Of a stretch of 63,539 nucleotides of DNA, positions 686 to 47,732 are shown piece by piece. The notes below the pieces were generated by a model, which saw only the letters and a list, made by a program, of their open reading frames with translations, was not told the DNA's origin and did not search any database. Both the position numbers and the translations under genes were made by a program. The DNA is from an uncultured bacterium. Its GTDB lineage: Bacteria; Verrucomicrobiota; Lentisphaeria; Victivallales; UBA1829. The stretch spans positions 1 through 63,539 of the forward strand of contig CACYHQ010000011.1 of assembly GCA_902774245.1 (NCBI GenBank), written 5' to 3'. The stretch's first letter is position 1. Every line of letters begins with the position of its first letter.

Positions 686-2617
686 TCAGCGAGGGCCGCC
701 CGCAGCGGGAGCACCAGCGCCGGGAGCGCCGGCAGGTCTGGGAGCGCCGCCCGCGGCACCGGGAGCACCGGCAGGTCTGGGAGCGCCGCCCATGCCGCCG
801 CCGAAGCCGCCCATGCCGCCGCCGAAACCGCCCATGCCGCCGCCGGGACGCTGGCCGCCGTTGGCGTTAGCCGCGGGAGCCGGATCCGGCTTGGGCTGCG
901 GAGGAACCGTGCCGCCGAAGGAGTCGAACAGCGGATCCTTGTTGACCGGGAGTTCGAACGCGGAGGTCGTGAGGCAGGTGAGATCGGTCTTGGACTTGAT
1001 GCCGTAGACTTTCTCGTTGAAGTAGTCGATCATGTAGTTCATGTCTTCGGCCGTGACAGCGTGGCCGGACTTGTGGATGTTCGCGACGATATTGTCGCCG
1101 AGGCCGAGCTTCTCATAGGAGGCCTTCGCGGCGCGGAAGGTGAGCCACATGGCCGGGGCGTTCACCCAGTCTTCACCCGTGCAGGAGCCGATGATGAAGA
1201 GGTAACGGTTCGGATCGGCGCAGAGCATGGCGAGCATGTGCTGGTCGACGGGGAGCGTCTTCGGATCCTTGAAGCACATGAACTTGTTGTTGAACCAGCC
1301 CTGTTCGCCGGTGGCCTGAAGACTGTCGATCGGCTCGTTCCGGCCGTACTTGTATTCCTTGGAATCGTTCTTGCTGGAGAAGTCGTAGGTCTTGCCTTCG
1401 GAGACGTAGCGGTACATCGCGACGCCGCCCGCGCCGGAGCAGGACGGAGCGCACATCTTGATGCGGGGCTCGAACGCGCCGCAGACCATGGCGGCCTTGC
1501 CGTAACGGGAGACGCCGGTCACGATGGTGTTCTTCGGGTTGATATTGAGTTCCTTGCCCGCGCCCTTTTCGAGGGCGTCGATGATGCGGGAAATGCCCCA
1601 GCTCCAGGCGAGGAGTTCGCCGGTCTGTTCCTTCCAGTCTTCGCCGTAGGGATACAGATCGTAGAAGAGGCCGGTGTGACGGTTGTTGTCAGCGGCGATG
1701 TTGGTGACGCCGCCCATGAAACCGCCGCCACCGCCGAAGGTCATGGAAGCATAGCCGCGGGAGGCCGCGACCGCTTCCTGCGCGCCGTGCATGCCGAGGA
1801 CGACGGGCCAGCCGCCTTCCGGCATCTTGACTTCGTCGCTGGCGGTCGGGAGCGTGATGTTCACGTCGAACGTGCCGGACTTGCCGGTGCTCTTGCGGGT
1901 GACGGTCACGGTCATGGACTTGCGGCCGTTGTTGTCGCCTTCGTTCATCTTGTAGGAGACATCGACTTCGGAGCCGTCGTGCCACACGCCGTACATGTAG
2001 TATTCATAGAGTTTCTTGATCTCTTCGGCGCGCTTCGACCAGTTGTCCTTGGTCACGGCGGTGCCGTCGCGGAATTTCATGACTTCCGGATACGCGTCGG
2101 AGGCCTTCAGATCCTTGACCATCGGGAAACCGCTGTCATCGGCCTTTTCGGGTTCCGTGCTGCGGATGCCGCCGGGGAGAGTCGCCATGTCGACCGCCGG
2201 GGTCTGATTCTGCTGGCCGCCGCCCATGCCGGGGAAGCCGCCCATGCCGCCGCCCATACCCATGCCGCCGAAGCCGCCCATGCCACCGCCGAAGCCGCCC
2301 ATGCCGCCGCCTGCGGGTCTCTGTCCGCCTGCGCCGGGTGCGCCAGCGGGTCTCTGTCCGCCTGCGCCGGGCGCGCCAGCGCCGGGACCGCCCGCGGGTC
2401 TCTGTCCGCCAGCGCCGGGCGCGCCGCCCATACCCATGCCGCCGAAGCCGCCGAAGCCGCCCATGGCGGGTGCGCCGCCGGGAGCAGCGCCGCCGGGAGC
2501 AGCACCACCGGGAGCAGCACCGCCGGCCGGAGCCTGCGCGGAAAGTGATGTTGCGAGGAAGAGCGCCCCTGCGAGAACTGAGCAGGAGACGACTGCCGAT
2601 TGGACATAACGTTTCAT
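686..2617 (-). CDS. Secreted CE15 (glucuronoyl esterase)-like protein with Gly-rich flanks
   Basis: 643 residues from ATG at 2617, which has GGAG 5 nt upstream; the longer open frame to 2686 has no such site. Signal peptide at residues 1-28 (ends SLSAQA). Residues about 29-150 are Gly/Pro/Met/Phe repeats. Residues about 160-590 form an alpha/beta hydrolase domain with GVSRYGKAA near 368, matching the G-C/V-S-R-x-G-K nucleophile block of CE15, followed by CAPSCSGAGG, and a late SGHAVTAEDM that supplies the expected histidine near 520. CE15 enzymes cleave ester bonds between glucuronoyl groups of xylan and lignin alcohols. The C-terminal 50 residues again are Gly/Pro repeats, so the catalytic domain is sandwiched between two low-complexity segments. 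Probably exported to the periplasm or surface. The family call is from motifs only; a related acetyl xylan esterase is possible. Confidence 0.8.
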   Translation of the reverse strand: MKRYVQSAVVSCSVLAGALFLATSLSAQAPAGGAAPGGAAPGGAAPGGAPAMGGFGGFGGMGMGGAPGAGGQRPAGGPGAGAPGAGGQRPAGAPGAGGQRPAGGGMGGFGGGMGGFGGMGMGGGMGGFPGMGGGQQNQTPAVDMATLPGGIRSTEPEKADDSGFPMVKDLKASDAYPEVMKFRDGTAVTKDNWSKRAEEIKKLYEYYMYGVWHDGSEVDVSYKMNEGDNNGRKSMTVTVTRKSTGKSGTFDVNITLPTASDEVKMPEGGWPVVLGMHGAQEAVAASRGYASMTFGGGGGFMGGVTNIAADNNRHTGLFYDLYPYGEDWKEQTGELLAWSWGISRIIDALEKGAGKELNINPKNTIVTGVSRYGKAAMVCGAFEPRIKMCAPSCSGAGGVAMYRYVSEGKTYDFSSKNDSKEYKYGRNEPIDSLQATGEQGWFNNKFMCFKDPKTLPVDQHMLAMLCADPNRYLFIIGSCTGEDWVNAPAMWLTFRAAKASYEKLGLGDNIVANIHKSGHAVTAEDMNYMIDYFNEKVYGIKSKTDLTCLTTSAFELPVNKDPLFDSFGGTVPPQPKPDPAPAANANGGQRPGGGMGGFGGGMGGFGGGMGGAPRPAGAPGAAGGAPRPAGAPGAGAPAAGGPR

Positions 2618-2729
2618 AAAAACTCCATTATGTTTGGGGGTTAAGAAATGAGGAGAGGTGAATTGATTTTTGATGAACGCAAACACGCTTTTGAGTTGGT
2701 TTCAACAGCAAAAAGTGCATTTCACCGAT

Positions 2730-2939: not shown

Positions 2940-2968
2940 TTGCATTATGCGCGCACACGGGATATATT
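2940..2968 (+). promoter_or_regulatory. Promoter at the head of the nitrogenase-like operon
   Basis: TTGCAT (2940-2945), 17-nt spacer, TATATT (2963-2968), placing transcription start about 35 nt before the first gene. The rest of the 393-nt stretch 2618-3010 holds the divergent promoter at 2730-2758 and otherwise shows no gene or strong hairpin that I could recognise. Confidence 0.65.
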
Positions 2969-3010
2969 AGGTGGTAATCTTTCAACCACAACCAACGGAA
3001 CGGAATCGCA

Positions 3011-3268
3011 ATGGAAACACGTGTGGCGGTATTGGCGATCCTCGCGGAGAGTTTCGACTCCGCGGAGCAGATCAACGCGCTCCTGCACGATTTCGGTCCG
3101 TACATCGTAGGCCGCATGGGCCTGCCCTACCGCGAAAGGAACGTCAACGTCATCAGCATCGTGATCGATGCTCCGCCGGACAAGATCAACGCTCTTGCCG
3201 GAAAACTCGGACGCATCGGAGGAGTCACGGCGAAAGCCGTCTACTCCAACCTCATAACAGCTCACTGA
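3011..3268 (+). CDS. TM1266-type ACT-like protein (iron-only hydrogenase system regulator family)
   Basis: 85 residues. The pattern of an ACT-like fold is visible: beta strand VAVLAILAE, a helix, GRMGLPYRERNVNVISIVIDA, and a final strand GGVTAKAVYSN. This matches the small TM1266 family, which is normally found beside [FeFe]-hydrogenase maturation genes and is annotated as an iron-only hydrogenase system regulator; its ligand and target are not established. It lacks a DNA-binding domain, so regulation would be through ligand or protein binding. It is the first gene of the operon, behind the promoter at 2940-2968, and is followed after 265 nt by hydE, which fits the usual association of the family. 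Confidence 0.75.
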   Translation: METRVAVLAILAESFDSAEQINALLHDFGPYIVGRMGLPYRERNVNVISIVIDAPPDKINALAGKLGRIGGVTAKAVYSNLITAH

Positions 3269-3533
3269 GTCCGCCGCCCGGCGAAAACCGGAAGCGGATT
3301 CATCCGATCAGATAGCAACACAACATCCCCTGACGCTGAAAAGTATTTTGAGGCGGAAGACCGAGCGTGCGGCATCGGACCGGACTGCGGAAACCGCATG
3401 ACATTTGTGCGGCGCGCGCATGTTCCGATCGACCATCCACGGCCGGATCCTTCACCAGGGGATCGCGGCCGATTCTTTTATTCAGCAGAGTCCGAGTGAA
3501 AAGAAACGGCGGCGGAAACCGCAGGAAACGCGC
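3269..3533 (+). other. 265-nt non-coding gap inside the operon head
   Basis: All other gaps in this operon are at most 1 nt, so this gap stands out. No reading frame in it looks like protein. It contains a small hairpin (GCGG-AAA-CCGC near 3387-3397) and a GC-rich segment at 3360-3430. I see no intrinsic terminator and no clear promoter. It may be a structured leader for hydE or simply spacer; I cannot identify a known riboswitch class. Confidence 0.35.
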
Positions 3534-4601
3534 ATGAACGCAAAGAAACGACAGAACGAGCTCAGGATCGACCGCCTGAACGCGGAGAAACGCCTCCCTC
3601 ATGAGGATTGGACGGCGCTGCTCTCCACGTGGGACGAGTCCGACCGCGCATACGCAGCAGGGATTGCCCGCGGGCTCGCGACCGCCCGGTTCGGGCACCA
3701 CGTTTTCGTGCGGGGCATTGTGGAGTTCTCCAACGTCTGCCGCAACGACTGTCTGTACTGCGGCATCCGCAAGTCAAACCTGAACTTCGAGCGCTATCGT
3801 CTGACCGAGGCGGAGATCATCGACTGCTGCGACGCCGGATACGAATACGGATTCCGCACATTCGTGCTTCAGAGCGGGGAGGATGCCGCCTGGCCGCCGC
3901 ACCGCCTCGCAGCGCTGGTCCGCACGCTCAAAACGAATCACCCGGACTGTGCCGTGACGCTGTCCGTCGGCGAGCTGACGCGCGACGAATATCAACTGCT
4001 GTTCGACGCGGGCGCGGACCGTTATCTTCTGCGGCACGAGACCGCCGATCCGGAGCATTACGCGAAGCTTCACATGCCGAATCAGAGCTGGGAACGCCGC
4101 ATGAGGTGTCTGCGCGACCTGAAGGAGATCGGATTCCAGACCGGATGCGGCTTCATGGTCGGCTCGCCGTACCAGACGCCCGGCACGCTCGCGAAGGACA
4201 TGGAGTTCATCACGGAGTTCCGCCCCGCCATGATCGGCATCGGCCCCTTCATCCCGCACTGCGACACGCCGTTCAGGAATGAACCCGCCGGAAGCGTGGA
4301 GTTCACGCTGTTCCTGCTGAGTCTGTGCCGCATCCTGCACCCGGACGTGCTGCTGCCCGCCACGACCGCGCTCGGCTCGCTGGATCCGGTCGGACGCGAA
4401 AAGGGCGTGCTCGCCGGGGCGAACGTCATCATGCCGAACCTGTCGCCGGAACAGGTCCGCGCGAAATACATGCTTTACAACAACAAGACCGCGGTCGACG
4501 TGGACACGCACATCACCACGTCGGATCTGCAGGCGCGCCTGCAGAAGATCGGCTATACGATCAAGGTGAGCCGCGGGGATTACGGAGAAACGTCATGCTG
4601 A
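3534..4601 (+). CDS. hydE: HydE-like radical SAM enzyme
   Basis: 355 residues from ATG 3534 (AGGAA 5 nt upstream); upstream in-frame codons look non-coding. The radical-SAM cluster ligands are in [20 protein letters not shown] (CxxxCxxC). Further HydE-type blocks follow in order: [39 protein letters not shown], and [12 protein letters not shown]. HydE acts in [FeFe]-hydrogenase H-cluster assembly on the Fe(Cys)(CO)2CN complex delivered by HydG. The C-terminal cysteines that hold an accessory cluster in some HydE proteins are absent (only a final Cys remains). No hydF, hydG or hydrogenase gene is in the window, and the gene overlaps the next nifH-like gene by 7 nt, so translation is coupled to the nitrogenase-like set. 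It may therefore serve a different iron complex from the H-cluster; that is inference. Confidence 0.85.
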
Positions 4602-5365
4602 AACTCGCATTCTACGGAAAAGGCGGCATCGGGAAATCCACGACCGTATCGAACCTCGCCTCGGCGTTCGCCGCGAACGGACTCAAAGTCATGCAGATCG
4701 GGTGCGACCCGAAGGCTGATTCCACCGCGTCCCTGCACGGCGGCGCGCGCATCCGTTCCATCCTCGACCTCGTCCGCGAACGCAACAACGATTTCACGCT
4801 CGACGAAATGGTCCGCGAGGGCGACGGCGGCGTGATCTGCGTGGAGGCGGGCGGCCCGACGCCCGGACTCGGCTGCGCAGGACGCGGCATCATCACCGCG
4901 CTGGAGAAACTCCAGGAAAAGGGCGCGTACGACGTGTACAAGCCGGACGTGGTGCTGTACGACGTGCTGGGCGACGTGGTCTGCGGCGGGTTCTCCATGC
5001 CGATGCGCAAGGGCTATGCCGACCGTGTGTTCATCCTCACTTCAGGCGAGACCATGTCCATTTACGCCGCCGCGAACATCGCCATGGCGGTGAAGAATTT
5101 CAGGGGGCGCGGCTATGCTTCGCTCGGCGGATTCGTGCTGAACCGCAGGAACGCGCCGGACGAGGACGCGAAGGCGGCGAAACTGGCGGCGGATTTCGAC
5201 TCCTCAATCATCGGCGCGCTCGACTGGAGCGAGACTGTCCAGCAGGCCGAACAGCTCGGGAAGACCGTCGTGCACGCTTTCCCGGAGAGCCCGATGGCCG
5301 CGCAGTACCGCGCGCTTGCGGATGCCGTGCTCGCCGCCGCCCGGAAAGGAGAAGCTCCATGCTGA
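4595..5365 (+). CDS. NifH-like reductase, first copy
   Basis: 256 residues, ATG at 4595 overlapping hydE, with GGAG upstream. P-loop GKGGIGKST at residues 8-16, [10 protein letters not shown] (Switch region), and the two cysteines that would bridge a [4Fe-4S] cluster between subunits: GCAGRG and [10 protein letters not shown]. All features of an ATP-dependent electron donor of the NifH/BchL/CfbC family are present. Slightly shorter than true NifH (about 275-295 residues). It should deliver single electrons, driven by ATP, to the D/K-like pair encoded directly downstream. Its C-terminal half ([18 protein letters not shown]) departs from the second copy at 7837-8601, suggesting that each copy serves its own partner. 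Confidence 0.9.
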
Positions 5366-6693
5366 AACGTTTGAACGGGCAAGACGACATGACCGGGGCG
5401 GAAGTCGCGATCCGCGACGCCGAATTCCCCGTGCCGTTCGTCTCCGGCCTCGAATACAACGCCCCCGCCCGCGGGCCGTGGAACATCGTCCACACGGGCA
5501 TGCTGATCCCCGAGTCGCACCAGGTCTTCGCCTGCGCGCAGGGCTGTCTCCGCGGCGTGATCCTGACCGCCGCCGAAATGATCGCCATGGACCGCATGTC
5601 ATGGATCTCCGTGGACCAGAACGACCTGTTCGACGGCTCACTGGAACGCAACATCGTGGACGGCACGGCGGAGATCATCCGCAAACTGCCGAAGAAGCCG
5701 CGCGCGCTCCTGCTTTTCATCAGCTGCGTGCACCTCTTCGCAGGGTGCGATTTCGAGGTCATGCTGAACGAACTCCGCGCGATGTTCCCGGACATCGACT
5801 TCATCGACTGCTACATGAACCCGACCATGCGCAAGAGCGGCCTCACGCCCGACCAGCTCATGCGCCGTCAGCTCTACGCGCCGTTCCGCCCCTGCCCCGC
5901 CGACAAAAACGCCGTGAATCTCATCGGCAACGACCGTCCGACCAACGAATCCAGCGAGCTCGTCCATCTGATCCATGCCGCCGGACGCGAACTTCGCGAC
6001 ATCACGCTGTGCAAGACCTATGACGAATATATGCGCATGGCGAAAAGCGCGCTGAACATCACCTATCTGCCGACCGCCGCAGCATCCGGAGACGCGCTCG
6101 AAAAACGTCTCGGACGTAAACATCTTTATCTGCCGCTCTCCTATGATTTCGACGAGATTGAACGAAATCTAAACAGCCTTGCCGATGCGCTCGGGATTGC
6201 CGCGCCCGACTGGTCTGGAGCAAAACAGAACGCCGTCCTCGCGCTCGAACAGGCAAAAGCCGTCGTCGGGGACACTCCGGTCGAGATCGACTACACCGCC
6301 ACGCCGCGCCCGGTCGGACTCGCCCTGCTCCTCGCCGAACACGGCTTCAACGTCACGCGCGTCTATACCGACGCCATGATCGAGGAGGAACGCCCCGCGT
6401 TCGAGCGTCTCCGCGCGCTCGCCCCCGACCTGCTGCTGACCGCCACGGTCAACGTGAAGATGCGGTTCGCAGGCAAGGGCGTCCACGAATCCGGCGACGT
6501 GCTGGCGATCGGGCAGAAAGCCGCGTATTTCAGCGGCACGAAACACTTTGTGAACATCGTGTCCGGCGGCGGCATGTACGGATTCGACGGCGTCGCCCGT
6601 CTCGCCCGGCGCATGATCGAAGCCGCAACGCACGAACAGGACACCGAGGTCGTGATCCAGTACAAGGGCCTCGGATGCAGGAGCTGCTTATGA
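5359..6693 (+). CDS. Nitrogenase component 1-like protein, D-type, first module
   Basis: 444 residues, overlapping the preceding nifH-like gene by 7 nt. Belongs to the oxidoreductase/nitrogenase component 1 family (PF00148 type). Cysteines that could bind an interfacial Fe-S cluster lie in [11 protein letters not shown] (near residues 59 and 63) and [18 protein letters not shown] (near 122 and 129), the latter in the place of the NifD Cys154 motif. Other marked blocks are [17 protein letters not shown] and a late [10 protein letters not shown]; the protein ends in GCRSC, a CxxC tail. The Cys and His that hold FeMo-cofactor in NifD are not recognisable, so nitrogen fixation is unlikely. It probably forms a heterodimer with the next gene product. 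The substrate is unknown. Confidence 0.82.
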
Positions 6694-7835
6694 AACAGAC
6701 CGCCAGAATCATCTCCATACACGCGGCCGACACCTCCGGTGTGTGCTCCATGCTGTACGAACTCGGCGGCATGGTAGTCGTCCACGACGCCTCCGGCTGC
6801 AACTCCACCTACTCCACGCACGACGAACCCCGCTGGTACCGTCAGGACAGCATGATCTACATCTCCGCCCTCACGGAGGCCGACGCGATCCTCGGCAACG
6901 ACGAAAAGCTCATCGCCGACGTCGTGGCAGCCGCAAAGGACCTCTCGCCGCGCTTCATCGCGCTCTGCGGCGCGCCGGTCCCGCTCCTCGCCGGAACCGA
7001 TTTCCCCGCCATCGCCGCCGAGGTCGAATCCCGCACCGGCATCCCGGCGTTCGGGCTCCACACCAGCGGCATGCACTCCTACCTGACCGGAGCCTCCGAG
7101 GCGCTGGAGGCGGTCGTGTCGCGGTTCTGCACCGACGCACTCCCGCGCACAGATGCGCCGTCCGCGAACATCCTCGGCGCGACACCGCTGGATTTCTCCG
7201 TCAACGGCACGATGGAATCCATCATCGAATGGCTGAACAAATCCGGGTTCGAGCTCGTCTCCTGCATGGCGATGGGCAGTACGCTCGACGATATCCGGCG
7301 CGCGTCCGCCGCCCACGTCAACCTCGTCGTTTCCTCCTGCGGGATCGCCGCCGCCGAATATCTCAGAAAACGATTCGGCACGCCGTGGCTCGCGGGCGTC
7401 CCAATCGGAAAAAGCTTCTCCGGCAAGCTCGCATCCGCATTAATGACTGCAAAAGAAACAGGCGCATGCGCCCTGCCCTGCGCCGAACGAGACGCATCCG
7501 CGCCCGGCAAAAAACTCGCCATCCCCGGCGAAACGGTCTTCAGCGGTTCCCTTGCCGCCGCGATCGAATCCGACTTCGGCGCGCCGTGCCGCGTGCTGTG
7601 TCCGCTGGAGGCCGAAGACAGATTGCTCGCGCCCGGCGACATCCGCATCTTCGACGAGGACGCCGCCTCGGAAGCGTTCGCCGCATCCTCCGGCGTGATC
7701 GCCGACCCGATGTACGCGCCGGTCTGCCCCCCGGACGTCCCGTTCCATCGCCTTCCGCACGAGGCGTTTTCAGGCAGATGCTACCGCAAAGAATCCCTGA
7801 ACCTGATCGACCGTCCCCTTCCCTGGAGGTTTTAA
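6690..7835 (+). CDS. Nitrogenase component 1-like protein, K-type, first module
   Basis: 381 residues from ATG 6690 (GGAG 6 nt upstream; ATGA overlap with the preceding stop). A small component 1-like protein, more compact than NifK. The N-terminal block [20 protein letters not shown] carries the single early cysteine that would complete an interfacial cluster with the D-type partner; the same HD/CDA-GC-DEPRW block recurs in the second K-type protein (9896-10957). A central [10 protein letters not shown] block is also shared. Residues after 230 have scattered cysteines without clear pattern. Expected to act as the partner subunit of the 5359-6693 product, receiving electrons from the first NifH-like protein. 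Confidence 0.78.
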
Positions 7836-7836
7836 C

Positions 7837-8601
7837 ATGCTGAAACTCGCGATATACGGTAAAGGCGGCATCGGCAAGTCGACCGTGACATCCAACCTCG
7901 CGGCGGCGTTCGCGCGCCTCGGATGCAAGGTCATCCAGATCGGCTGCGACCCGAAGGCCGACTCCACCATCAATCTGCTCGGCGGCGATCCCGTGATCCC
8001 CGTCATGAACTTCCTGCGCGAACACGACCGCGAACCCGAACGCATCGAGGAGATCGCAAAGACCGGATTCGGCGGGGTGCTGTGCATCGAGACCGGCGGT
8101 CCGACCCCCGGCCTCGGCTGCGCCGGACGAGGAATCATCACCACGTTCAGTCTGCTCGCCGACCTGAAACTGTTCGAAACGTACAAGCCCGATGTGGTGC
8201 TCTACGACGTGCTGGGCGACGTAGTGTGCGGCGGATTCGCCGCCCCGATCCGCGAAGGATACGCCTCGCAGGTCCTGATCGTGACCTCCGGCGAAAAGAT
8301 GGCGCTCTATGCGGCAAACAACATCAACAGCGCCGTGCACAATTTCGAGGACCGCGGCTACGCCGCCGTGCGCGGCATCGTGCTGAACCGCCGGAGCGTC
8401 GACCGCGAAGAGGAGAAAGTGCGCGCCTTCGCGGACGCGAACGGCCTCCCGATCGTGGCGGACATCCCGCGCAGCGGCGACATCATCCGGTTCGAGGACA
8501 TGGGGAAAACGGTCGTCGAAGGCAACCCCGAGCTCGACGTCAGCAAGCGCTTCCTCGCGCTTGCGCAACTCCTTCTCGACGAGGAGAAAGCATCCGCATG
8601 A
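7837..8601 (+). CDS. NifH-like reductase, second copy
   Basis: 254 residues, starting 2 nt after the preceding gene, with GGAGG upstream. P-loop GKGGIGKST at residues 8-16, [22 protein letters not shown] and [10 protein letters not shown] with the two cluster cysteines. It differs from the first copy mainly after residue 165, where it keeps the more usual NifH-like [19 protein letters not shown] block that contacts the component 1 partner. The high identity around the P-loop and the divergence at the docking face point to a duplicated module in which each reductase serves a separate D/K pair. Confidence 0.9.
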
Positions 8602-9899
8602 ATCACGCGTACTCCATCACGGCGGCCGAACTCGCGGCGCGCGGCAGGGACGACATCCCGCCCGAACTGCTCTCCTCCGCTCATCTCATCTACAGCTCCC
8701 CGGCCACGCTGGCGTTCAACTCGCCCGGCGCGCAGGGATTCGGTGTGAAACGCGCCGGTCTCGCCGTGCCCGGGTCGGTCATGCTGCTGGTCGCCCCGGC
8801 CTGCTGCGGACGAAACACCTCCGCGCTCGGCTGCGAGGCGTCCCTCGCCGAACGGTTCTTCTACCTCATGCAGGACGACACGGACATCGTGACGGGGCGC
8901 CATCTGGCGCGCATCCCGGAAGCCGTGAAGGATGTCTGCGATTCCTGCGCGGTGCGTCCGTCCGCGGTCATGATCTGCATCACGTGCGTGGACGCCCTGC
9001 TCGGCACGGACATGGAACGCGTCTGCCGGAAGGCTTCGGACTACGCCGGCGTCCCGGTCGTGCCGTGCTACATGTACGCGCTGACCCGCGAAGGCCGCCT
9101 GCCGCCGATGGTCTCCGTGCGGCGTTCGGTCTACTCCCTGCTTCAGCCGCGCGAAAAAGTCCCGACCTCCGTGAATATCCTCGGTTTCTTCTCGCCCCTG
9201 CGCGACGACACAGAGTTATACACGCTGCTGCGCTCCGCCGGAGTCCGCGCGATCCGCGAAATCTCCCGTTGCGCCGACTATGAAGAATACCAGAAAATGG
9301 CCGAGGCGAACTTCAATCTCGTGCTCAATCAGGAGGCGCGCCATGCCGCCGCCGACTTGCAGAAACGCCTGGGTATCCCGTCCGTCGAACTAGCCCGTCT
9401 CTACCAGACGGACAAGATCGCGAACCAGTACCGTCTGCTCGGACAGGCAGTCGGCGCGGAGTTCGACGATGCGCCCTACCGCGAACGAGCCGAACAGACC
9501 ATTGTCAATTTCAAAAACGCGTTCGGACACCGCACTTTCGCCGTCGGCGAATGGCTGAACGCCGATCCCTTCGAGCTTTCGTTGTCTCTGATCCGCAACG
9601 GATTCTCCGTCTCCGAAATCTTCGGCACGGTCGGCGGTTCCAACTTCGTCTACGTGAAGAAGATCGCCGCGCTCAGCCCGGAAACGAAAATCTACTCCAA
9701 TCTCTCCCCGTCCATGATGTTCTACGATGGCGCGGACTCACACTGCGACACGGTCATCGGACGCGACGCGATGTACTACCATCCGGCACTGCCCGGCGTG
9801 GCGTGGAACGACGAACGCCAGCCGTTCGGGTACGCCGGAGTCGCCGCACTCTTCGGTGCGCTCGAAAAAGCGCTATCTGGAAAGGAGGGTACTCGATGA
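8598..9899 (+). CDS. Nitrogenase component 1-like protein, D-type, second module
   Basis: 433 residues; ATG 8598 overlaps the preceding stop (ATGA). Component 1 family. Candidate cluster ligands: [20 protein letters not shown] (three cysteines), DVCDSCAV, and [19 protein letters not shown] in the NifD Cys154 position. The [12 protein letters not shown] segment after the first cysteine block also looks like component 1 proteins. Later blocks [31 protein letters not shown] and YYHPALPGV have no counterpart in the first module, so the two D-type proteins are clearly distinct in sequence. FeMo-cofactor ligands are not recognisable. Substrate unknown. Pairs with the K-type protein that follows. 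Confidence 0.8.
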
Positions 9900-10957
9900 A
9901 AAGCCTGCTGAAACACCTTTCGCCGTTCGCGCCCGACCAGTCCGGAGCCGTCTCCGCGCTCTTCGACTTCGGCGGACTCATCGTGATCTGCGATGCAGGC
10001 GGCTGCACCGGGAACATCTGCGGCTTCGACGAACCGCGCTGGTTCATCCGCAAAAGCGCCGTCTTCAGCGCCGGGCTCCGCGACATGGACGCCATTCTCG
10101 GCCGCGATGACAAACTCGTCTCCAAACTCCAGTCCGCCCTGGACAGCTCCGGCCTCAAATTCTCCGCCATCATCGGCACCCCGGTCCCCGCGATCATCGC
10201 GACCGATTTCAAGGCGCTGAAACGTATGGCGGAGAAACGCACCGGACTACCCGCGATCACGGTCGCAACGACCGGAACGCGTCACTACGACCGGGGCGCG
10301 TCCGACGCCTGGCTGGAACTTTTTAAAACGTTTGCGATTGAGAATCTCGATATTGATCCCGGCACGGTCGGCATCCTCGGCGCGTCGCCGCTGGATTTCC
10401 CGACGCTCGACGCCGGAAATCTGCTGTCTGATGCACTGAAAAAAGACGGTTGGAATAAAGTCAAATGCTATGGCATGGGCGCGGGGCTCGATGATGTTAA
10501 AAAAGCATCTTCCGTTGTGAAAAACATCGTTGTTTCGCCTGCCGGACTCGCCGCCGCGAAGTATCTGGAAAAGACCTTCGGCACCCCCTATGAAGTACGC
10601 TGCCCGTGGCTGCCGCAACAGGTGCTCGGCGCACTGCCCGCGCTCGCCGGGAGAAAGACGCTCGTGATCCATCAGCAGTTCGCCGCGAACACCGTCCGCG
10701 ATAAAATATTGAAACTTGATCCCGCCTCTCAGGTCGACGTCGCGTCCTGGTTCATTATGGAACCGGACTATATGCGCTCCGGCGGCTTCCGCATCGAGAG
10801 CGAAGAGGCGTTCATAGAGGCGGTCGCGAACGGCGGCTACGATGCGATCGTCTGTGACAGCCGTCTGCGCGTCGCCCTGCCCCGGACGCAGAGTTTCAAC
10901 ATCATCGACTTCCCGCATTTCGCCGTCTCCGGACGGCTTCTCGACGAGGTGAAATAA
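9896..10957 (+). CDS. Nitrogenase component 1-like protein, K-type, second module
   Basis: 353 residues; ATG 9896 overlaps the preceding stop and has a strong GGAGG (9884-9888). N-terminal block LIVICDAGGCTGNICGFDEP parallels the first K-type protein and holds its likely cluster cysteine. The shared ILGASPLDF block follows near residue 160. The C-terminal part is shorter than in the first module and lacks its cysteines. HypF begins 1 nt after its stop, so the nitrogenase-like set and the hyp genes are read as one transcript with coupled translation. Confidence 0.78.
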   Translation: MKSLLKHLSPFAPDQSGAVSALFDFGGLIVICDAGGCTGNICGFDEPRWFIRKSAVFSAGLRDMDAILGRDDKLVSKLQSALDSSGLKFSAIIGTPVPAIIATDFKALKRMAEKRTGLPAITVATTGTRHYDRGASDAWLELFKTFAIENLDIDPGTVGILGASPLDFPTLDAGNLLSDALKKDGWNKVKCYGMGAGLDDVKKASSVVKNIVVSPAGLAAAKYLEKTFGTPYEVRCPWLPQQVLGALPALAGRKTLVIHQQFAANTVRDKILKLDPASQVDVASWFIMEPDYMRSGGFRIESEEAFIEAVANGGYDAIVCDSRLRVALPRTQSFNIIDFPHFAVSGRLLDEVK

Positions 10958-10958
10958 G

Positions 10959-13337
10959 ATGAACACGGCTAACGTTTCCACCACGGTCTTCCGCATCTAC
11001 GGCGTCGTCCAAGGCGTCGGATTCCGTCCGTTCGTCAGCCGGATCGCCGTCCGCGCCGGACTCACCGGCAGCGTCGCGAACAAGGGTTCCTACGTGGAAA
11101 TCCACGCGCAGGGAAACGAGGAAGCAATGAAAGACTTCCGCCTCGCGCTCGAACACGAGGCCCCGCCGCGTTCCGCGATCCTGAAAATCGACACGCGCGT
11201 CCGCATGGAGCCGCCCTACCCGACGTTCGAGATCATCGAGAGCGAACACGAAACCGGGGATATCTTCGTCTCGCCGGACATCGCCACGTGCGACCAGTGC
11301 AAACAGGAGCTGTTTGACGTCACGAACCGCCGCTATCTGCACCCCTTCATCAACTGCACCGCGTGCGGCCCGCGCCTGACCATCCTCGACGCCATGCCCT
11401 ACGACCGCGAACGCACCAGCATGGGCTATTTTCTGATGTGTCCGCAGTGCGGGAACGAATACACCTCGCCGGAGTCGCGCCGTTACGACGCCCAGCCGGT
11501 CTGCTGTCACGACTGCGGCCCGGAAGTCTACCTCATCGGACGCCCCGAACGCAACGAAAAGGCCATCACCGCCGCCCGCCGCGCCATCCTCGACGGAAAG
11601 ATCGTCGCGATCAAGGGCATCGGCGGCTTCCATCTGTGCTGCAATGCCCGCGACGCGCAGGCCGTGGCGCGTCTGCGCGAACTCAAGCACCGTCCCATGA
11701 AGCCGTTCGCCGTGATGATGGACTCGCTGGAGACGGTCCGCCGCGAATGCGTGATCCTGCCCGGACAGGAGGAGATCCTGGACGGCCATCAGAAACCGAT
11801 CATCCTGCTCAGGAAACGCTCCGAAAGCGCGCTTCCGGACGTCCTCGCGCCCGACAATCCTACGCTCGGCGTGATGCTGCCGTACGCACCCGTCCAGATG
11901 CTGCTCTTCCACTTTAACGACGACCTGACCATGCCCGACTGCCTCGTCATGACCAGCGGCAACGTCTCCGGCGCGCCCATCTGCCGCAGCGACGAGGACG
12001 CGCTCGCCGAGATCGCCGGGTTCTGCGACGTGATCCTGTCCCACAACCGCCGGATCCGTCTCCGCGCGGACGATTCGGTCATGGACTGGCTGGACGGCCG
12101 TCCGTACATGATCCGCCGGTCGCGCGGCTACGCGCCGCTGCCGTTCTTCGTCTCCGGCGACTTCCGCGGACAGGTGCTCGGCATCGGCGGCGAGCTCAAA
12201 AACACCTTCTGCCTCGCAAACGGCGGCCTCTTCTATCCCTCGCCCTACATCGGCGACATGGAGGACCTGCGCACGGTCCGCGCCCTGCGGGAATCGGTCG
12301 CGCGGATGTCCGAACTGCTCGAGATGAAACCGCAGATCGTCTGCTGCGACCTGCACCCGAAATACAACTCGTCCGCCGTCGCGTCCGAACTCGGCATCCC
12401 CGTCCTGAAGATCCAGCACCACTATGCGCATGTGCTCTCCTGCATGGTCGAAAACGACTTCACGGACGAGGTCATCGGCGTGTCGTTCGACGGTACCGGA
12501 TACGGCACGGACGGCACGATCTGGGGCGGGGAATTCCTGCGCGCCAGACCGGACGGCTTCACCCGCGCCGGATATATCAAACCGTTTTTGCAGGCGGGCG
12601 GCGACGCCTCTGCGCGCGAAGGCTGGCGCATCGCCGTTTCGATGATCGCCGGCCTGTTCCCCTCCGATGAAGCAGAACGTGTTGTCGCCGCGCTCGACCT
12701 CTGCTCGCCCGGCGTTTATAAGTTCCAGAAGAACATGCTGGATAAAAAACTGAACTGTGTGCTTTCGACCAGCGCGGGGCGTCTTTTCGACGCCGTCAGC
12801 GCGATCCTCGGCATCCGCAAATCCTCCACGTTCGAGGGCGAAGCGTCCATGGCGCTCCAGTTCGCCGCCGAGGCATGGAATGAGTCGCATCCCGGACAGA
12901 CGGAAATCGTTCCGGCTTATACGAACTTCGACCGCGACGCCTCCGGCGCGATCGTCCTGCCGACGGATTTGCTTGCGAAGGACATCATCCTTGCCCGGCT
13001 CGACGGCGCGGATTCCGGCATGCTCGCCGCCCGCTTCCACTCGGCACTCGCCAATATGATCGCGAAGACGTGCGAAGCCATCCGAGAAGATTCCGGGCTG
13101 AACACCTGCGCGCTGACCGGAGGCGTGTTCCAGAACCGTCTGCTCACGACGCTCTGCGCCGATCTTCTTCGCGGCGCGGGATTCCGCGTGCTGCTGCACG
13201 GCATGATCCCGCCCAACGACGGCGGCATCGGCGCGGGCCAGGCGTTCGCCGCCATGTACCATCTGAACCACCCGAACAACAATTCATCCATATCACATTC
13301 CCCCATACAAACACAAGGAGACGGCTTATGTGTGTAG
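10959..13337 (+). CDS. hypF: HypF carbamoyltransferase
   Basis: 792 residues, full family length. Domains in order: acylphosphatase-like (GVVQGVGFRPFV, residues 1-90); two zinc fingers (CDQC/CTAC and CPQC/CCHDC, about 105-190); YrdC-like (KIVAIKGIGGFHLCC, about 200-390); Kae1-like carbamoyl transfer domain (KIQHHYAHVLSCM, VSFDGTGYGTDGTIWGGE, ALTGGVFQNRLL). It makes carbamoyl-AMP from carbamoyl phosphate and loads the carbamoyl group onto the C-terminal cysteine of HypE, the source of cyanide ligands in [NiFe]-hydrogenase maturation. All catalytic blocks look intact. No [NiFe]-hydrogenase gene is nearby. Two starts downstream exist but the acylphosphatase domain requires this one. Confidence 0.95.
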   Translation: MNTANVSTTVFRIYGVVQGVGFRPFVSRIAVRAGLTGSVANKGSYVEIHAQGNEEAMKDFRLALEHEAPPRSAILKIDTRVRMEPPYPTFEIIESEHETGDIFVSPDIATCDQCKQELFDVTNRRYLHPFINCTACGPRLTILDAMPYDRERTSMGYFLMCPQCGNEYTSPESRRYDAQPVCCHDCGPEVYLIGRPERNEKAITAARRAILDGKIVAIKGIGGFHLCCNARDAQAVARLRELKHRPMKPFAVMMDSLETVRRECVILPGQEEILDGHQKPIILLRKRSESALPDVLAPDNPTLGVMLPYAPVQMLLFHFNDDLTMPDCLVMTSGNVSGAPICRSDEDALAEIAGFCDVILSHNRRIRLRADDSVMDWLDGRPYMIRRSRGYAPLPFFVSGDFRGQVLGIGGELKNTFCLANGGLFYPSPYIGDMEDLRTVRALRESVARMSELLEMKPQIVCCDLHPKYNSSAVASELGIPVLKIQHHYAHVLSCMVENDFTDEVIGVSFDGTGYGTDGTIWGGEFLRARPDGFTRAGYIKPFLQAGGDASAREGWRIAVSMIAGLFPSDEAERVVAALDLCSPGVYKFQKNMLDKKLNCVLSTSAGRLFDAVSAILGIRKSSTFEGEASMALQFAAEAWNESHPGQTEIVPAYTNFDRDASGAIVLPTDLLAKDIILARLDGADSGMLAARFHSALANMIAKTCEAIREDSGLNTCALTGGVFQNRLLTTLCADLLRGAGFRVLLHGMIPPNDGGIGAGQAFAAMYHLNHPNNNSSISHSPIQTQGDGLCV

Positions 13338-13546
13338 GTCTTTCCGCAAGAGTTGTCAGCATCGAGGACGGCACCGCCCTCATCGACGCGTCCGGCGCGA
13401 AACGCAAGGTTTCGGCGGACCTCATCGACGATCTGGAGCCGGGCGATTACGTCATGGTCCATGCCGGCGTCGCCATCGCGAAGATCACGGACACGGACAC
13501 GGACGAATCCCGCAAGATCATGGAGTCGCTCGATGGAATCGGCTAA
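13328..13546 (+). CDS. hypC: HypC iron-cyanide-carbonyl scaffold chaperone
   Basis: 72 residues, ATG 13328 with AAGGAG upstream, overlapping hypF by 10 nt. It begins MCVG, keeping the essential Cys2 that HypC proteins use with HypD to hold iron. The OB-fold pattern is visible (ARVVSIEDGTALIDASGAKR, then LEPGDYVMVHAGVAIAKI). HypC normally carries Fe(CN)2CO to the hydrogenase large subunit; here no such subunit is encoded, so the acceptor is unknown and could be one of the nitrogenase-like proteins. Confidence 0.93.
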   Translation: MCVGLSARVVSIEDGTALIDASGAKRKVSADLIDDLEPGDYVMVHAGVAIAKITDTDTDESRKIMESLDGIG

Positions 13547-14579
13547 ACAGATCATCGAATCCTACGTCGGGCGCAAACTCCGGATCATGGAGGTCTGCGG
13601 CACCCATACCCACGAGATCTTCCGTCTCGGCATCCGCCGCATCCTGCCGCCGCAGATCGAACTCATCTCCGGTCCCGGGTGCCCAGTCTGCGTGACGCCC
13701 GCCGGGTACATCGACGAGGCGGTCATGCTCGCGCTCGAACACGGCGCGGTCATCTGCACGTTCGGCGACCTGATCCGCGTGCCAGGGTCGGAAATGAGTC
13801 TCGCGGGGGCGCGGTCCAAAGGGGCGGCGGTGAAAACCGTCTACTCGCCGCTGGACGCGGTCGATTTCGCGCGGGAGAACCCGGACAAACAGGTCGTGTT
13901 CCTGGCGGTCGGATTCGAGACGACGGTCCCGGCGGCATGTCTTGCGGTGAAGAAGGCCGCCGCCGAAGGGCTCGCGAACTTCTCGATCCTCGGCGCGAAC
14001 AAGACCATGCCGAACGCGTACAAGGCGCTGAAGGGCAGCGCGGACGCGTTCCTGTACCCCGGCCACGTGAACGCCATCACCGGCACCGCCGTCTGCGAAG
14101 ACCTCGTGAAGCTCGGCGTCTCCGGCGTCGTGGCGGGATTCACCGCCGACGAGATCCTCACCGCGCTCGCGGTCATCGTCAAGCTGTCCGCCTCCGGCGA
14201 ACCGTTCTTCCGCAACTGCTATCCGCGTGTAGTGCGCCCCGAGGGGTCGCCCGCCGCGCTGAAGCTGATGGACACGGTCATGGAGCCGTGCGACGCGGAG
14301 TGGCGCGGACTCGGCGTGATCCCGATGTCCGGCCTGAAACTCCGTCCGGCGTTCGCCGCGCACGACGCCCGGCTGAAGTTCAGCCTGCCGCCCGTCGCGG
14401 GACGGAGCAATCCCGCCTGCCGCTGCGGCGAGGTGCTTCAGGGCAAATGCAAATCCACCGACTGCAAACTATTCGGGACCGCTTGCACCCCGCTCCACCC
14501 GGTCGGAGCGTGCATGGTCTCCAACGAAGGGGCGTGTTCCGCCTACTACCAATACGGAGATATTCTCAATGAACAATAA
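13533..14579 (+). CDS. hypD: HypD Fe(CN)2CO assembly protein
   Basis: 348 residues from ATG 13533, overlapping hypC by 14 nt; the longer frame from 13353 is a shadow of hypC. Diagnostic blocks: MEVCGTHTHEIFRLG, ISGPGCPVCVTP, GFETTVPAA, YPGHVNAITG, and a C-terminal cysteine-rich segment (CRCGEVLQGKCKSTDC, then CTPLHPVGACMVSNEGACS) that binds the [4Fe-4S] cluster. With HypC it is the platform where iron receives two CN and one CO. No residue normally considered essential appears to be lost. Confidence 0.95.
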   Translation: MESAKQIIESYVGRKLRIMEVCGTHTHEIFRLGIRRILPPQIELISGPGCPVCVTPAGYIDEAVMLALEHGAVICTFGDLIRVPGSEMSLAGARSKGAAVKTVYSPLDAVDFARENPDKQVVFLAVGFETTVPAACLAVKKAAAEGLANFSILGANKTMPNAYKALKGSADAFLYPGHVNAITGTAVCEDLVKLGVSGVVAGFTADEILTALAVIVKLSASGEPFFRNCYPRVVRPEGSPAALKLMDTVMEPCDAEWRGLGVIPMSGLKLRPAFAAHDARLKFSLPPVAGRSNPACRCGEVLQGKCKSTDCKLFGTACTPLHPVGACMVSNEGACSAYYQYGDILNEQ

Positions 14580-15579
14580 TGAATTCGTGACGCTCGCGCA
14601 CGGCGCGGGCGGACGCCAGACTGCCGAACTCATCGACCGCGTCTTCAAGGCGCATTTCTCCAACCCGGATTTCACCGGCGACGACGCCGCGGTCCTGCCC
14701 GTGGACGCCGGAAAGATCGCGTTCACCACCGACGGCTTCATCGTGTCGCCGTTCGAGTTCCCCGGCGGCAACATCGGCAAGCTCAGCATCTGCGGCACGG
14801 TCAACGACCTCGCATGCATGGGCGCGAAACCGCTCTACCTCTCCTGCGCGTTCGTGATCGAGGAGGGTTTCCCCCTCGCCAAGCTCGAAGAGATCGCCGC
14901 CGCCATGAAGAAGACCGCAGACGAGGCCGGAGTCCGCATCGTGGCGGGCGACACCAAGGTCGCGGGCAAGGGCCAGGTCGACCACGTCTTCATCACCACC
15001 ACCGGCGTCGGACAGCTCACCGAGGGCGTCCGTACCTCCGGCTCGTTCGCGCGTCCCGGCGACGCCGTGATCGTAACTGGCGACGTAGGCCGCCACGGCT
15101 GCACCATATTGCTCGCCCGCAACGAGTTCGAGATCGACGCCGACGTGACCAGCGACTGCGCCCCGCTCTGGGGCACCGTGAAGAGCATGATCGACGCCTC
15201 GCACGACATCCACGTGATCCGCGACGCCACGCGTGGCGGCGTCGGCACCGTCCTGTACGAAATCGCCGACCAGAGCAAAGTCGGGATCCGCCTCAATTCA
15301 GCCGATGTCCCAGTCGCACCCGAAGTCCGCGGCGTCTGCGGCATGCTCGGACTCGAACCGCTTTACCTCGCCTGCGAAGGACGCCTCGTCGTCTTCGCGC
15401 CGAAATCCGAAGCGCCCGCCATCCTCGAAGCGCTCCGCAAGGGCCCCTACTCCGCCAACGCCGCGATCATCGGCGAAGTCGTCGCCGACCATCCCGGCAA
15501 GGTCGTCATGACCACCGAGATCGGCGCGCAGTCGCTTCTGCCCCAGCCCGGCGGCGAGCTCCTGCCCCGGATCTGTTAA
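14569..15579 (+). CDS. hypE: HypE carbamoyl dehydratase
   Basis: 336 residues, overlapping hypD by 11 nt. PurM/SelD-like ATPase: LAHGAGGRQTAELI, FTGDDAAVLPVD, GKLSICGTVNDLACMGA, DTKVAGKGQVD, DATRGGVGTVLYEIA. The protein ends in PRIC with the C-terminal cysteine that is carbamoylated by HypF and dehydrated to thiocyanate before CN transfer to HypD-HypC. It is the last gene of the operon; an intrinsic terminator follows 26 nt later. HypA and HypB, needed for nickel, are absent. Confidence 0.95.
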   Translation: MNNNEFVTLAHGAGGRQTAELIDRVFKAHFSNPDFTGDDAAVLPVDAGKIAFTTDGFIVSPFEFPGGNIGKLSICGTVNDLACMGAKPLYLSCAFVIEEGFPLAKLEEIAAAMKKTADEAGVRIVAGDTKVAGKGQVDHVFITTTGVGQLTEGVRTSGSFARPGDAVIVTGDVGRHGCTILLARNEFEIDADVTSDCAPLWGTVKSMIDASHDIHVIRDATRGGVGTVLYEIADQSKVGIRLNSADVPVAPEVRGVCGMLGLEPLYLACEGRLVVFAPKSEAPAILEALRKGPYSANAAIIGEVVADHPGKVVMTTEIGAQSLLPQPGGELLPRIC

Positions 15580-15604
15580 TCAGACGAACAATCTTTGACG
15601 ATCT

Positions 15605-15648
15605 ATCCCCGTCGAGAACCGAATGATGGTCCGGCGGGGATTCTTTTT
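15605..15648 (+). terminator. Intrinsic terminator after hypE
   Basis: Ten-bp stem (ATCCCCGTCG with CGGCGGGGAT, one G-T wobble) followed by TCTTTTT. Ends the 12-gene operon. Confidence 0.8.
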
Positions 15649-42685: not shown

Positions 42686-42775
42686 ATCACACCCTAAATC
42701 GTGGTTTTATAGAATCATTTGCCGCATATACTATACACCGATAACTTTTCTTTATCAATCTATGCCGAACGATTA

Positions 42776-42805
42776 TTTTCAGTTTTGGTACACACGGGCT
42801 ATATT
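42776..42805 (+). promoter_or_regulatory. Possible promoter of the bio operon
   Basis: TATATT (42800-42805) preceded at 18 nt by a weak TTTTCA (42776-42781). It lies 47 nt before bioB. A match to the BirA operator consensus was not seen in the 166-nt intergenic gap. Confidence 0.35.
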
Positions 42806-42851
42806 TATATTTGACTTTTTGAAACCACCCTACCCTTTTCAGGAGCCTCAC

Positions 42852-43859: not shown

Positions 43860-43860
43860 C

Positions 43861-45800: not shown

Positions 45801-45811
<11 letters not shown>
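44561..45811 (+). CDS. bioA: Adenosylmethionine-8-amino-7-oxononanoate aminotransferase
   Basis: 416 residues from ATG 44561 (GGGAGG upstream). Class III aminotransferase: LWHPYAS near the start, SSWWCAAHGHSRPE, GGYHGDTVGAMAVSD, IFDEIATGFGRTG, MTIGKALTAGTVSLA with the PLP lysine, and HGPTFMANPLACAAA. Makes DAPA from KAPA. BioD and BioA are separate; BioWF follows with an 11-nt overlap. Confidence 0.95.

Positions 45812-47732
<1,921 letters not shown>

What the first reader, a model, noticed from the sequence alone, without database searches (positions are those of the whole stretch)
2940..15648. One operon joins HydE, two nitrogenase-like HDK triplets and HypFCDE
Twelve genes read in one direction behind one promoter, almost all overlapping: TM1266-type regulator, HydE, NifH-D-K-like set 1, NifH-D-K-like set 2, HypF-C-D-E, terminator. 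Known nitrogenase-like systems (BchLNB, BchXYZ, CfbCD, MarHDK) carry one reductase with one D/K partner and no hydrogenase maturation genes. Here two complete sets come with enzymes that make Fe(CN)2CO (HypCDEF) and a radical SAM enzyme that normally works on an Fe-CO-CN complex (HydE). A simple hypothesis is a new metallocofactor, built on HypC-HypD, modified by HydE, and matured on or used by the D/K-like proteins.
Basis: partly seen in the sequence, partly recalled or inferred. Interest (0 to 1): 0.93.

Follow-up and report, generated by a model that had tools for sequence, protein, structure and literature searches.

The report
Nitrogenase-like route to hydrogenase metal centre
A gene cluster shared by many gut and rumen bacteria joins two sets of nitrogenase-like genes to four genes of nickel-iron hydrogenase assembly; HydG, the enzyme that normally supplies carbon monoxide and cyanide to the other main hydrogenase type, was found in none of the 79 carrier genomes tested, so the cluster is predicted to build that enzyme's metal centre by a second route.

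Summary
Twelve adjacent plus-strand genes (3011-15579) encode TM1266, HydE, H1-D1-K1, H2-D2-K2 and HypF-C-D-E. The set is widespread: 329 stretches in an 84,980-species collection encode a D2 relative; of the best 80 loci, 57 are 15 kb or longer and 52 of these hold D1, K1, H2, D2, K2 and HypFCDE (Bacillota, Lentisphaerota, single MAGs of other phyla). The key new fact is what carriers lack. HydG, which makes the CO/CN ligands of the [FeFe]-hydrogenase H-cluster, is over cut-off in 0 of 79 carriers, against 14 of 18 non-carriers of the same family and 241 of 380 other Clostridia; HydA (30 of 31 tested), HydE (18 of 18) and HydF (17 of 18) remain. Best reading: a HydG-independent H-cluster pathway. 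HypCDEF would supply ligated iron, the nitrogenase-like proteins would remodel it, HydE and HydF would finish. A second variant keeps H1-D1-K1 and replaces H2-D2-K2-Hyp by a FecBCD-type importer, its ATPase fused to a TM1266 domain in 4 of 6 loci. All biochemistry is inferred. Against it: about 114 HydA-positive, HydG-negative Clostridia showed no such cluster at my threshold.

The parts
3011..3268 (+). TM1266-type small protein (iron-only hydrogenase system putative regulator)
   Evidence: TIGR03959 102.4 bits, PF21699
3534..4601 (+). HydE, radical SAM maturase
   Evidence: TIGR03956 500.8 bits, cut-off 254.6; CRNDCLYC motif in sequence
4595..5365 (+). H1, NifH-like reductase of set 1
   Evidence: GKGGIGKST P-loop and two cluster-type Cys (GLGC, DVVC) in sequence; 298 bits to nifH, 299 to CfbC, below both cut-offs
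5359..6693 (+). D1, nitrogenase component-1-like subunit of set 1
6690..7835 (+). K1, nitrogenase component-1-like subunit of set 1
   Evidence: PF00148 115 bits
7837..8601 (+). H2, NifH-like reductase of set 2
   Evidence: 292 bits to nifH, below cut-off 394
8598..9899 (+). D2, nitrogenase component-1-like subunit of set 2
9896..10957 (+). K2, nitrogenase component-1-like subunit of set 2
   Evidence: PF00148 57 bits
10959..13337 (+). HypF, carbamoyltransferase
   Evidence: acylphosphatase, zf-HYPF, YrdC-like and Kae1-like domains, all over cut-off
13328..13546 (+). HypC, chaperone
   Evidence: TIGR00074 63.2 bits, cut-off 48; N-terminal MC
13533..14579 (+). HypD
   Evidence: TIGR00075 392.3 bits, cut-off 192.8
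14569..15579 (+). HypE, ends in PRIC (C-terminal Cys)
   Evidence: PF00586 and PF02769 over cut-off; sequence

Best explanation
The operon likely encodes a HydG-independent pathway that builds the diatomic-ligated iron of the [FeFe]-hydrogenase H-cluster from HypCDEF and two nitrogenase-like complexes instead of from tyrosine. Shown: gene content, conservation, and that HydG was found in none of 79 carrier genomes tested. Inferred: (1) HypF and HypE would make cyanide from carbamoyl phosphate, and HypC-HypD would hold the iron that receives it, giving an Fe(CN)2CO unit as in [NiFe] maturation. (2) That unit has the wrong ligand count for the H-cluster (per iron one CN and 1.5 CO), so it would have to be remodelled; D2-K2, beside HypF, HypC and HypD in all 57 long loci, would take it up, and H2 would drive the reduction with ATP. 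(3) D1-K1 with H1, usually in the company of TM1266 and often of HydE or HydF, would convert it into the Fe(CO)2(CN)-type substrate that HydG normally hands to HydE; reduction of CO2 or exchange of CN for CO on these scaffolds are candidate steps. (4) HydE and HydF would then finish and deliver the [2Fe] unit to HydA as in the known pathway. In a second variant H2-D2-K2-HypFCDE is replaced by a FecBCD-type importer, which would bring in the same or an equivalent iron complex.
For: HydG over cut-off in 0 of 18 carriers of the window's family against 14 of 18 non-carriers (Fisher p 1.6e-6); in 0 of 50 further carriers; in 0 of 13 D2 carriers of an even draw of 393 Clostridia against 241 of the other 380 (p 3.1e-6): 79 distinct genomes, two of the 13 being among the 50. 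Within two genera both states occur: G006 has HydG (918 bits) and lacks PF00148 and HypD, its 12 congeners the reverse; G017 has HydG and no PF00148, G024 of the same genus the cluster. HydA kept in 17 of 18 and 13 of 13 carriers, HydE over cut-off in 18 of 18, HydF in 17 of 18. Two HydA of this genome carry TSCCP.W, MPC.AK and E.MACPGGC (motifs recalled). In the 80 best loci TM1266 is seen in 49, HydE in 34, HydF in 25, HydG in 0; five HydF and two HydE of these were checked and pass the NCBIfam cut-offs. In all 57 loci of 15 kb or more the nif-like and hyp genes present lie on one strand, and 52 of 57 hold D1, K1, H2, D2, K2 and HypFCDE. In this genus [NiFe] large subunit 0 of 13, and each of the 12 carriers has exactly one HypD. 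D1/K1/D2/K2 keep three of the ligand positions of a bridging cluster but not the full P-cluster set or the FeMo-cofactor Cys. All six H1-D1-K1-only loci carry the importer; no importer permease or binding protein was found in the 80 loci or in eight more D2 loci; four of the six importer ATPases end in a TM1266 domain.
Against: Correlation only; no step is shown biochemically. By my hand count from the lists, about 114 of 369 HydA-positive Clostridia have neither HydG nor a D2 hit nor one of the D1-only loci, so loss of HydG has other companions too (D1-only genomes are under-detected: the D2 profile also reported D1 in only 3 of the 13 D2 carriers). Four non-carriers of the family also lack HydG (G023, G029, G032, G033). 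HydE is not in every cluster: in genera g6, g7 and g8 it lies on another contig, and it is seen in 30 of 57 long loci. HydA lies in the fetched stretch of none of the 80 loci and of one of eight more (L144). Of the 13 D2 carriers of Clostridia ten loci were seen: eight have both D/K sets beside HypFCDE, L147 and L148 show only set 2 (L147 without HypCDE in the stretch), three were not looked at. HypCDEF makes a unit with two CN and one CO, which does not fit the H-cluster without a further step. HydA was not checked in the 50 genomes, and [NiFe] hydrogenase not outside the window's order. G026 has no HydA match (80% complete), G004 no HydF. The distant importer-HDK loci show that related proteins also occur without HydE nearby, and in four of six genomes beside HydG.
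Confidence: 0.6

Rival explanations
1. The D/K-like pairs are a new catalyst: they carry a new metallocofactor built on HypC-HypD and modified by HydE, and reduce an unknown substrate.
For: Two H-D-K sets with conserved Cys (D1 C59, C218, C440; D2 C69, C127) that the Nif and Bch reference rows lack at those positions; D and K sets are their own groups.
Against: Does not explain why HydG was found in none of 79 carriers, why HydF and TM1266 often travel with the set, or why HDK2-Hyp can be exchanged for an importer while HDK1 stays with HydE/HydF/TM1266. No substrate-metabolism gene recurs widely in the flanks: beyond the twelve, the only families in six or more of the 80 loci were a HydF family (25) and one of 9.
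Confidence: 0.15
2. The set is an iron-chelate or cyanide-handling system (as the importer-HDK relatives suggest); HydG is lost in the same lineages for another reason and their HydA are matured by something else or are idle.
For: Distant relatives pair H-D-K with a FecBCD-type importer and no HydE nearby, also on a Treponema saccharophilum plasmid; about 114 HydA-positive, HydG-negative Clostridia showed no cluster.
Against: Exclusive swap with HydG inside two genera; TM1266 fused to importer ATPases in four of the six HDK1-type loci but not seen in the distant ones; HydA motifs intact.
Confidence: 0.17
3. The cluster replaces HydG only as a ligand source: HypCDEF gives CN, the nitrogenase-like proteins give free CO from CO2, and HydE/HydF pick up the free diatomics, without an iron synthon passing through D/K.
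For: PMC9431212 (section 17 read) cites work in which HydE plus HydF without HydG gave about 1% activation from trace diatomics, doubled by exogenous CO or CN. Reduction of CO2 to CO by nitrogenase Fe proteins is recalled, not from a call.
Against: Free CO and CN would be toxic and wasteful; HypC-HypD is known (recalled) to hold the iron unit; two full D/K scaffolds would seem unnecessary (inference).
Confidence: 0.06
4. An ordinary set of [NiFe] hyp genes and unrelated nitrogenase-like genes that happen to be neighbours.
For: HypCDEF score as ordinary Hyp proteins.
Against: Gene set kept across phyla, [NiFe] large subunit absent in the genus (0 of 13), HypD present there only in carriers, no hypA or hypB in the operon.
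Confidence: 0.02

Closest known systems
[FeFe]-hydrogenase maturation by HydG, HydE and HydF
   Same: HydE, HydF and the target HydA are present in nearly all carrier genomes where they were sought; the predicted product is the same H-cluster
   Different: HydG was found in 0 of 79 carriers; HypCDEF and two nitrogenase-like complexes would stand in its place
[NiFe]-hydrogenase maturation by HypCDEF
   Same: HypF, HypC, HypD, HypE with family scores over cut-off and the HypE C-terminal Cys
   Different: no hypA/hypB in the operon and no [NiFe] large subunit in the genus; in one run of genes with H-D-K sets
NifEN (FeMo-cofactor scaffold maturase)
   Different: apart from NifE and NifN in the tree; ligand set reduced; no NifB in the operon; works with Hyp/Hyd proteins
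Light-independent protochlorophyllide reductase (BchLNB)
   Different: no tetrapyrrole gene in the operon; two sets; sequence far from BchN and BchB, whose long branches leave the exact relation unsure
Methylthio-alkane reductase MarHDK and CfbCD
   Same: nitrogenase-like proteins; MarHDK structures are among the fold matches (9d9u, 9fmg); H1 scores 299 bits to CfbC
   Different: CfbC cut-off 402 not reached; no hyp/hyd genes are known with either (recalled)
HydG-less acetogens described in PMC9431212
   Same: HydE and HydF found in each acetogen but HydG only in three; the authors suggest among other things unknown ways of incorporating the ligands (section 17 read)
   Different: no nitrogenase-like or Hyp role in this is proposed in that section; whether those strains carry this cluster was not tested here

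Membership tests
Nitrogenase NifHDK | three P-cluster Cys in D and three in K | tested here: not met
   D1 C63/C123 and D2 C70/C130 align with two NifD ligands, the first is missing; K1 and K2 keep only C37 of the NifK ligands
Nitrogenase NifHDK | FeMo-cofactor Cys of NifD (Av Cys275 type) | tested here: not met
   aligned position is Y236 in D1, L243 in D2 of the window (2 of 10 D1 rows have a Cys there)
Nitrogenase superfamily (PF00148 with NifH-type reductase) | component-1 domain over Pfam cut-off and component-1 fold | tested here: met
NifH / CfbC | NCBIfam cut-off | tested here: not met
   298 and 292 of 394 (NifH); 299 and 287 of 402 (CfbC)
HydE | TIGR03956 cut-off and CxxxCxxC | tested here: met
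   500.8 of 254.6; CRNDCLYC
HypCDEF | HypC and HypD NCBIfam cut-offs, HypF domain set, HypE C-terminal Cys | tested here: met
[NiFe]-hydrogenase maturation operon | a [NiFe] large subunit in the genome | tested here: not met
   PF00374 in 0 of 13 genomes of the genus; of 18 carriers of the family 15 have no match, the three of g7 have one partial match each
[FeFe]-hydrogenase maturation (HydEFG) | HydG present | tested here: not met
   over cut-off in 0 of 79 carriers
[FeFe]-hydrogenase maturation (HydEFG) | HydA, HydE and HydF present in the genome | tested here: met
   G000: HydA at C8 and C4, HydE family at C11, C4 and C29, HydF at C1
[FeFe]-hydrogenase maturation (HydEFG) | makes the CO/CN-ligated iron precursor | not testable with these tools
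   needs FTIR or isotope labelling

The most novel reading that the evidence does not exclude
Life has a second, ATP-driven, nitrogenase-like route to the H-cluster, and its iron-cyanide-carbonyl intermediate is a shared good: bacteria with HDK2-HypCDEF make it, and neighbours that keep only HDK1 with HydE and HydF import it through a FecBCD-type transporter whose ATPase carries a TM1266 domain.
Probability: 0.2. Interest if true: 0.97.

Novelty: categorically new. Interest (0 to 1): 0.93.

Why it matters
Organisms with [FeFe] hydrogenase but no recognisable HydG have been noticed without a settled explanation (PMC9431212, section 17 read). This cluster gives a concrete, testable candidate in gut and rumen bacteria, among them Ruminococcus bicirculans, Blautia luti, Anaerobutyricum hallii and Eubacterium ramulus. 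If true it would bring nitrogenase-like proteins and the HypCDEF chemistry of [NiFe] enzymes into the service of the other hydrogenase class, and give a parts list for making H-clusters without a radical tyrosine lyase.

Tried and rejected
Rejected: [NiFe] maturation with chance neighbours; true nitrogenase (ligand test). Stretches around one HydA in each of 20 HydG-less Clostridia showed no maturase or nif-like gene, which leaves those genomes unexplained. A gene first matched as HydA beside HydG in G006 (L173) lacks the H-cluster motifs and is not one. In the tree the BchN/BchB and NifN rows sit on long branches, so their exact placing is unsure.
Full report

How far it reaches. In the window's genus 12 of 13 genomes have the set, and six genomes of three other genera of the same family (in G012 the contig ends in K1, so D2 is not seen there, and in G003, G012 and G025 the set is split over two contigs). 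Fetched loci show the same order: TM1266-(HydE)-H1-D1-K1-H2-D2-K2-HypF-C-D-E, with protein identities down to about 49%. Among these HydE is inside the cluster only in the window's genus; in g6, g7 and g8 it lies on another contig. A scan of 84,980 species with the D2 alignment found 329 encoding stretches; the best 80 were kept. Their titles name Lentisphaerota MAGs, many from rumen and gut, many Lachnospiraceae, Ruminococcus, Eubacterium, Blautia, Anaerostipes, Anaerobutyricum, Clostridium-like strains, and single Spirochaetaceae, Synergistaceae and Atopobiaceae MAGs. Of the 80 loci, H2 is seen in 78, K2 in 77, HypF 73, K1 71, D1 70, HypC and HypD 67, H1 64, HypE 62, TM1266 49, HydE 34, HydF 25, HydG 0, HydA 0; many misses are contig ends. 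In the 57 loci of 15 kb or more, H2, D2, K2, HypF, HypC and HypD are in all 57, D1 in 56, K1 55, HypE 54, H1 53, TM1266 45, HydE 30, HydF 20, the nif-like and hyp genes always on one strand; 52 of 57 hold D1, K1, H2, D2, K2 and HypFCDE together. Two main orders occur: set 1 before set 2, or H2-D2-K2-HypFCDE-TM1266-H1-D1-K1. In two Clostridium-like strains H1 and D1 are one protein of about 700 aa, and in five Clostridia loci (L142-L146) a single H (H2) lies with both D/K pairs.

What the carriers lack. The other recurrent gene in the loci, first found as an unnamed family, is HydF: five of the 25 were checked and score 548-576 bits (cut-off 325.55). HydE, HydF and TM1266 without HydG suggested a test. 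In the window's family none of 18 carriers has HydG over cut-off, while 14 of 18 non-carriers do (Fisher p 1.6e-6; two of the 14 are contig-end fragments). The four exceptions are G023 (78% complete), G029, G032 (56% complete, has a HypD fragment) and G033. Fifty more carriers, given as loci, have 0 of 50 (every one of them has lower hits, of ThiH and HydE size). In an even draw of 393 Clostridia, HydG is over cut-off in 241; D2 at E below 1e-160 marks 13 carriers; 0 of 13 have HydG over cut-off and 13 of 13 have HydA (p 3.1e-6). Two of these 13 are among the 50, so 79 distinct carriers were tested. Of the 13, ten loci were seen: eight have both D/K sets beside HypFCDE, L147 and L148 show only set 2 (L147 without HypCDE in the stretch), three were not looked at. 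Both states occur inside one genus twice: G006 has HydG and neither PF00148 nor HypD, unlike its 12 congeners; G017 has HydG and no PF00148, and G024, of the same genus, the cluster. So HydG and the cluster appear to replace each other while HydA (17 of 18 and 13 of 13), HydE (18 of 18) and HydF (17 of 18) stay. The genome of the window (86% complete) has two HydA with intact H-cluster motifs, three HydE-family genes over cut-off and one HydF, no [NiFe] large subunit match, and its only HypD is the one in the cluster.

Why this points to the H-cluster. HydG makes the CO and CN ligands from tyrosine and passes an Fe(CN)(CO)2 synthon to HydE, which reduces and dimerises it; HydF carries the product to HydA (PMC12752695, passages seen; PMC3105041, abstract seen: all five ligands come from tyrosine). 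A genome with HydA, HydE and HydF and no HydG needs another source of ligated iron. The cluster brings HypCDEF, which makes and inserts Fe(CN)2CO in [NiFe] maturation (passage of PMC9431212). Two CN and one CO per iron do not fit the H-cluster, so a remodelling step is needed, and two reductase/scaffold systems related to NifEN are candidates for it. This chain is inference.

Ligands. In alignments with reference Nif and Bch proteins, D1 C63 and C123 and D2 C70 and C130 fall on two of the three Cys that hold the P-cluster in NifD; K1 and K2 keep one Cys (C37). The third NifD ligand, the other NifK ligands and, in the window's proteins, the FeMo-cofactor Cys are missing (ligand roles recalled). 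Over 27 D1 and 24 D2 sequences further Cys are invariant (D1 C59, C218, C440; D2 C69, C127, C225), though C218 and C225 fail in 1 and 2 of 10 rows of a wider set. So the pairs probably bridge one Fe-S cluster and are not nitrogenases. A quick tree groups all D rows of this kind (29, support 99) and all K rows (29, support 100) apart from the Nif rows; D2 and K2 are single groups (98, 100), and D1 and K1 of the importer variant mix with D1 and K1 (groups of 14, support 100 and 94). The Bch rows are on long branches and their place is unsure.

The importer variant. Twelve Clostridia hits of the D2 profile at 1e-32 to 1e-59 were followed. Six (G171, G236, G304, G427, G434, G496) have H1-D1-K1 at 44-71% identity to the window's proteins and no D2 or Hyp in the stretch; three of them have HydE and two HydF next to it, and five a TM1266 domain, free or fused; the two HydE, one HydF and one TM1266 tested pass their cut-offs. 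All six carry a substrate-binding protein, a FecCD/BtuC-type permease and an ATPase in the same neighbourhood; no such permease or binding protein was found in the 80 loci or in the eight D2 loci L142-L149 (stretches of at most 10 kb either side). In four of the six the ATPase has a C-terminal TM1266 domain by Pfam (65-70 bits, cut-off 27). None of the six has HydG over cut-off (three have no match at 1e-30, three only about 5e-51), five have HydA (not G496). The simplest reading is that the importer brings in what HDK2-HypCDEF makes elsewhere. The other six hits (L131, L136, L138-L141) are more distant (D 28-35%); five have the complete importer and L141 at least the binding protein; no TM1266, HydE or HydF lies nearby, and four of these genomes keep HydG. 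A similar locus is on the Treponema saccharophilum plasmid pTS1. They look like a separate, perhaps older import-and-reduce system.

Against. About 114 of the 369 HydA-positive Clostridia (my hand count from the lists: 237 with HydG, 13 with D2, 5 with the importer variant) have none of these. The D2 profile under-detects D1-only genomes, but I could not search again. For 20 such genomes I looked around one HydA and saw no maturases. So absence of HydG does not imply the cluster, though no carrier with HydG has turned up. HydA lies beside the cluster in only one locus (L144) and in none of the 80. HydA was not tested in the 50 genomes and [NiFe] enzymes not outside the window's order.

Prior work. 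Nine text searches of an open-access library found no description of this combination in their listings. PMC9431212 (section 17 read) reports acetogens with HydE and HydF but no recognisable HydG, offers a divergent HydG-like radical SAM protein or unknown ligand incorporation, and finds HypCDEF in all of them; that section does not link the two. PMC10418091 (passages) ties MarHDK-like genes to other clusters.

Verdict. Confidence in a HydG-independent H-cluster pathway is 0.6; the detailed order of steps is much less sure.

Noticed in passing
L132, L134, L135, L137 (H1-D1-K1-only loci): FecBCD-type importer beside H1-D1-K1 whose ATPase is fused to a TM1266-like domain (PF21699), linking an import system to the [FeFe]-hydrogenase regulator family.
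   Followed up: partly
L131, L136, L138-L141 and L170 (Treponema saccharophilum plasmid pTS1): A more distant nitrogenase-like D-K (mostly H-D-K) set with a FecBCD-type importer (only the binding protein seen in L141) and no HydE/HydF/TM1266 nearby; four of the six Clostridia genomes keep HydG. Cargo and reaction unknown.
   Followed up: partly
class Clostridia draw (e.g. G458, G289, G383, G338, G497): About 114 HydA-positive genomes, several of 1-2 Mb, without HydG and without this cluster at the threshold used; no maturase near one HydA in the 20 looked at.
   Followed up: partly
L058, L055 (P0082, 700 aa): H1 and D1 fused into one protein in Clostridiaceae bacterium BL-3 and a Clostridium MAG.
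   Followed up: no
G000:C4:14244-15266 and G000:C29:24416-25414: Two further HydE-family genes (343 and 333 bits) in this genome besides the cluster's (500 bits); their roles are unclear.
   Followed up: no
window 686-2686 (-): Protein with long Gly/Pro/Ala-rich repeats around a glucuronyl-esterase-type domain (PF22244).
   Followed up: no
window 42363-47732: Biotin genes: a radical SAM protein with BATS domain and a BioW-aminotransferase fusion.
   Followed up: no
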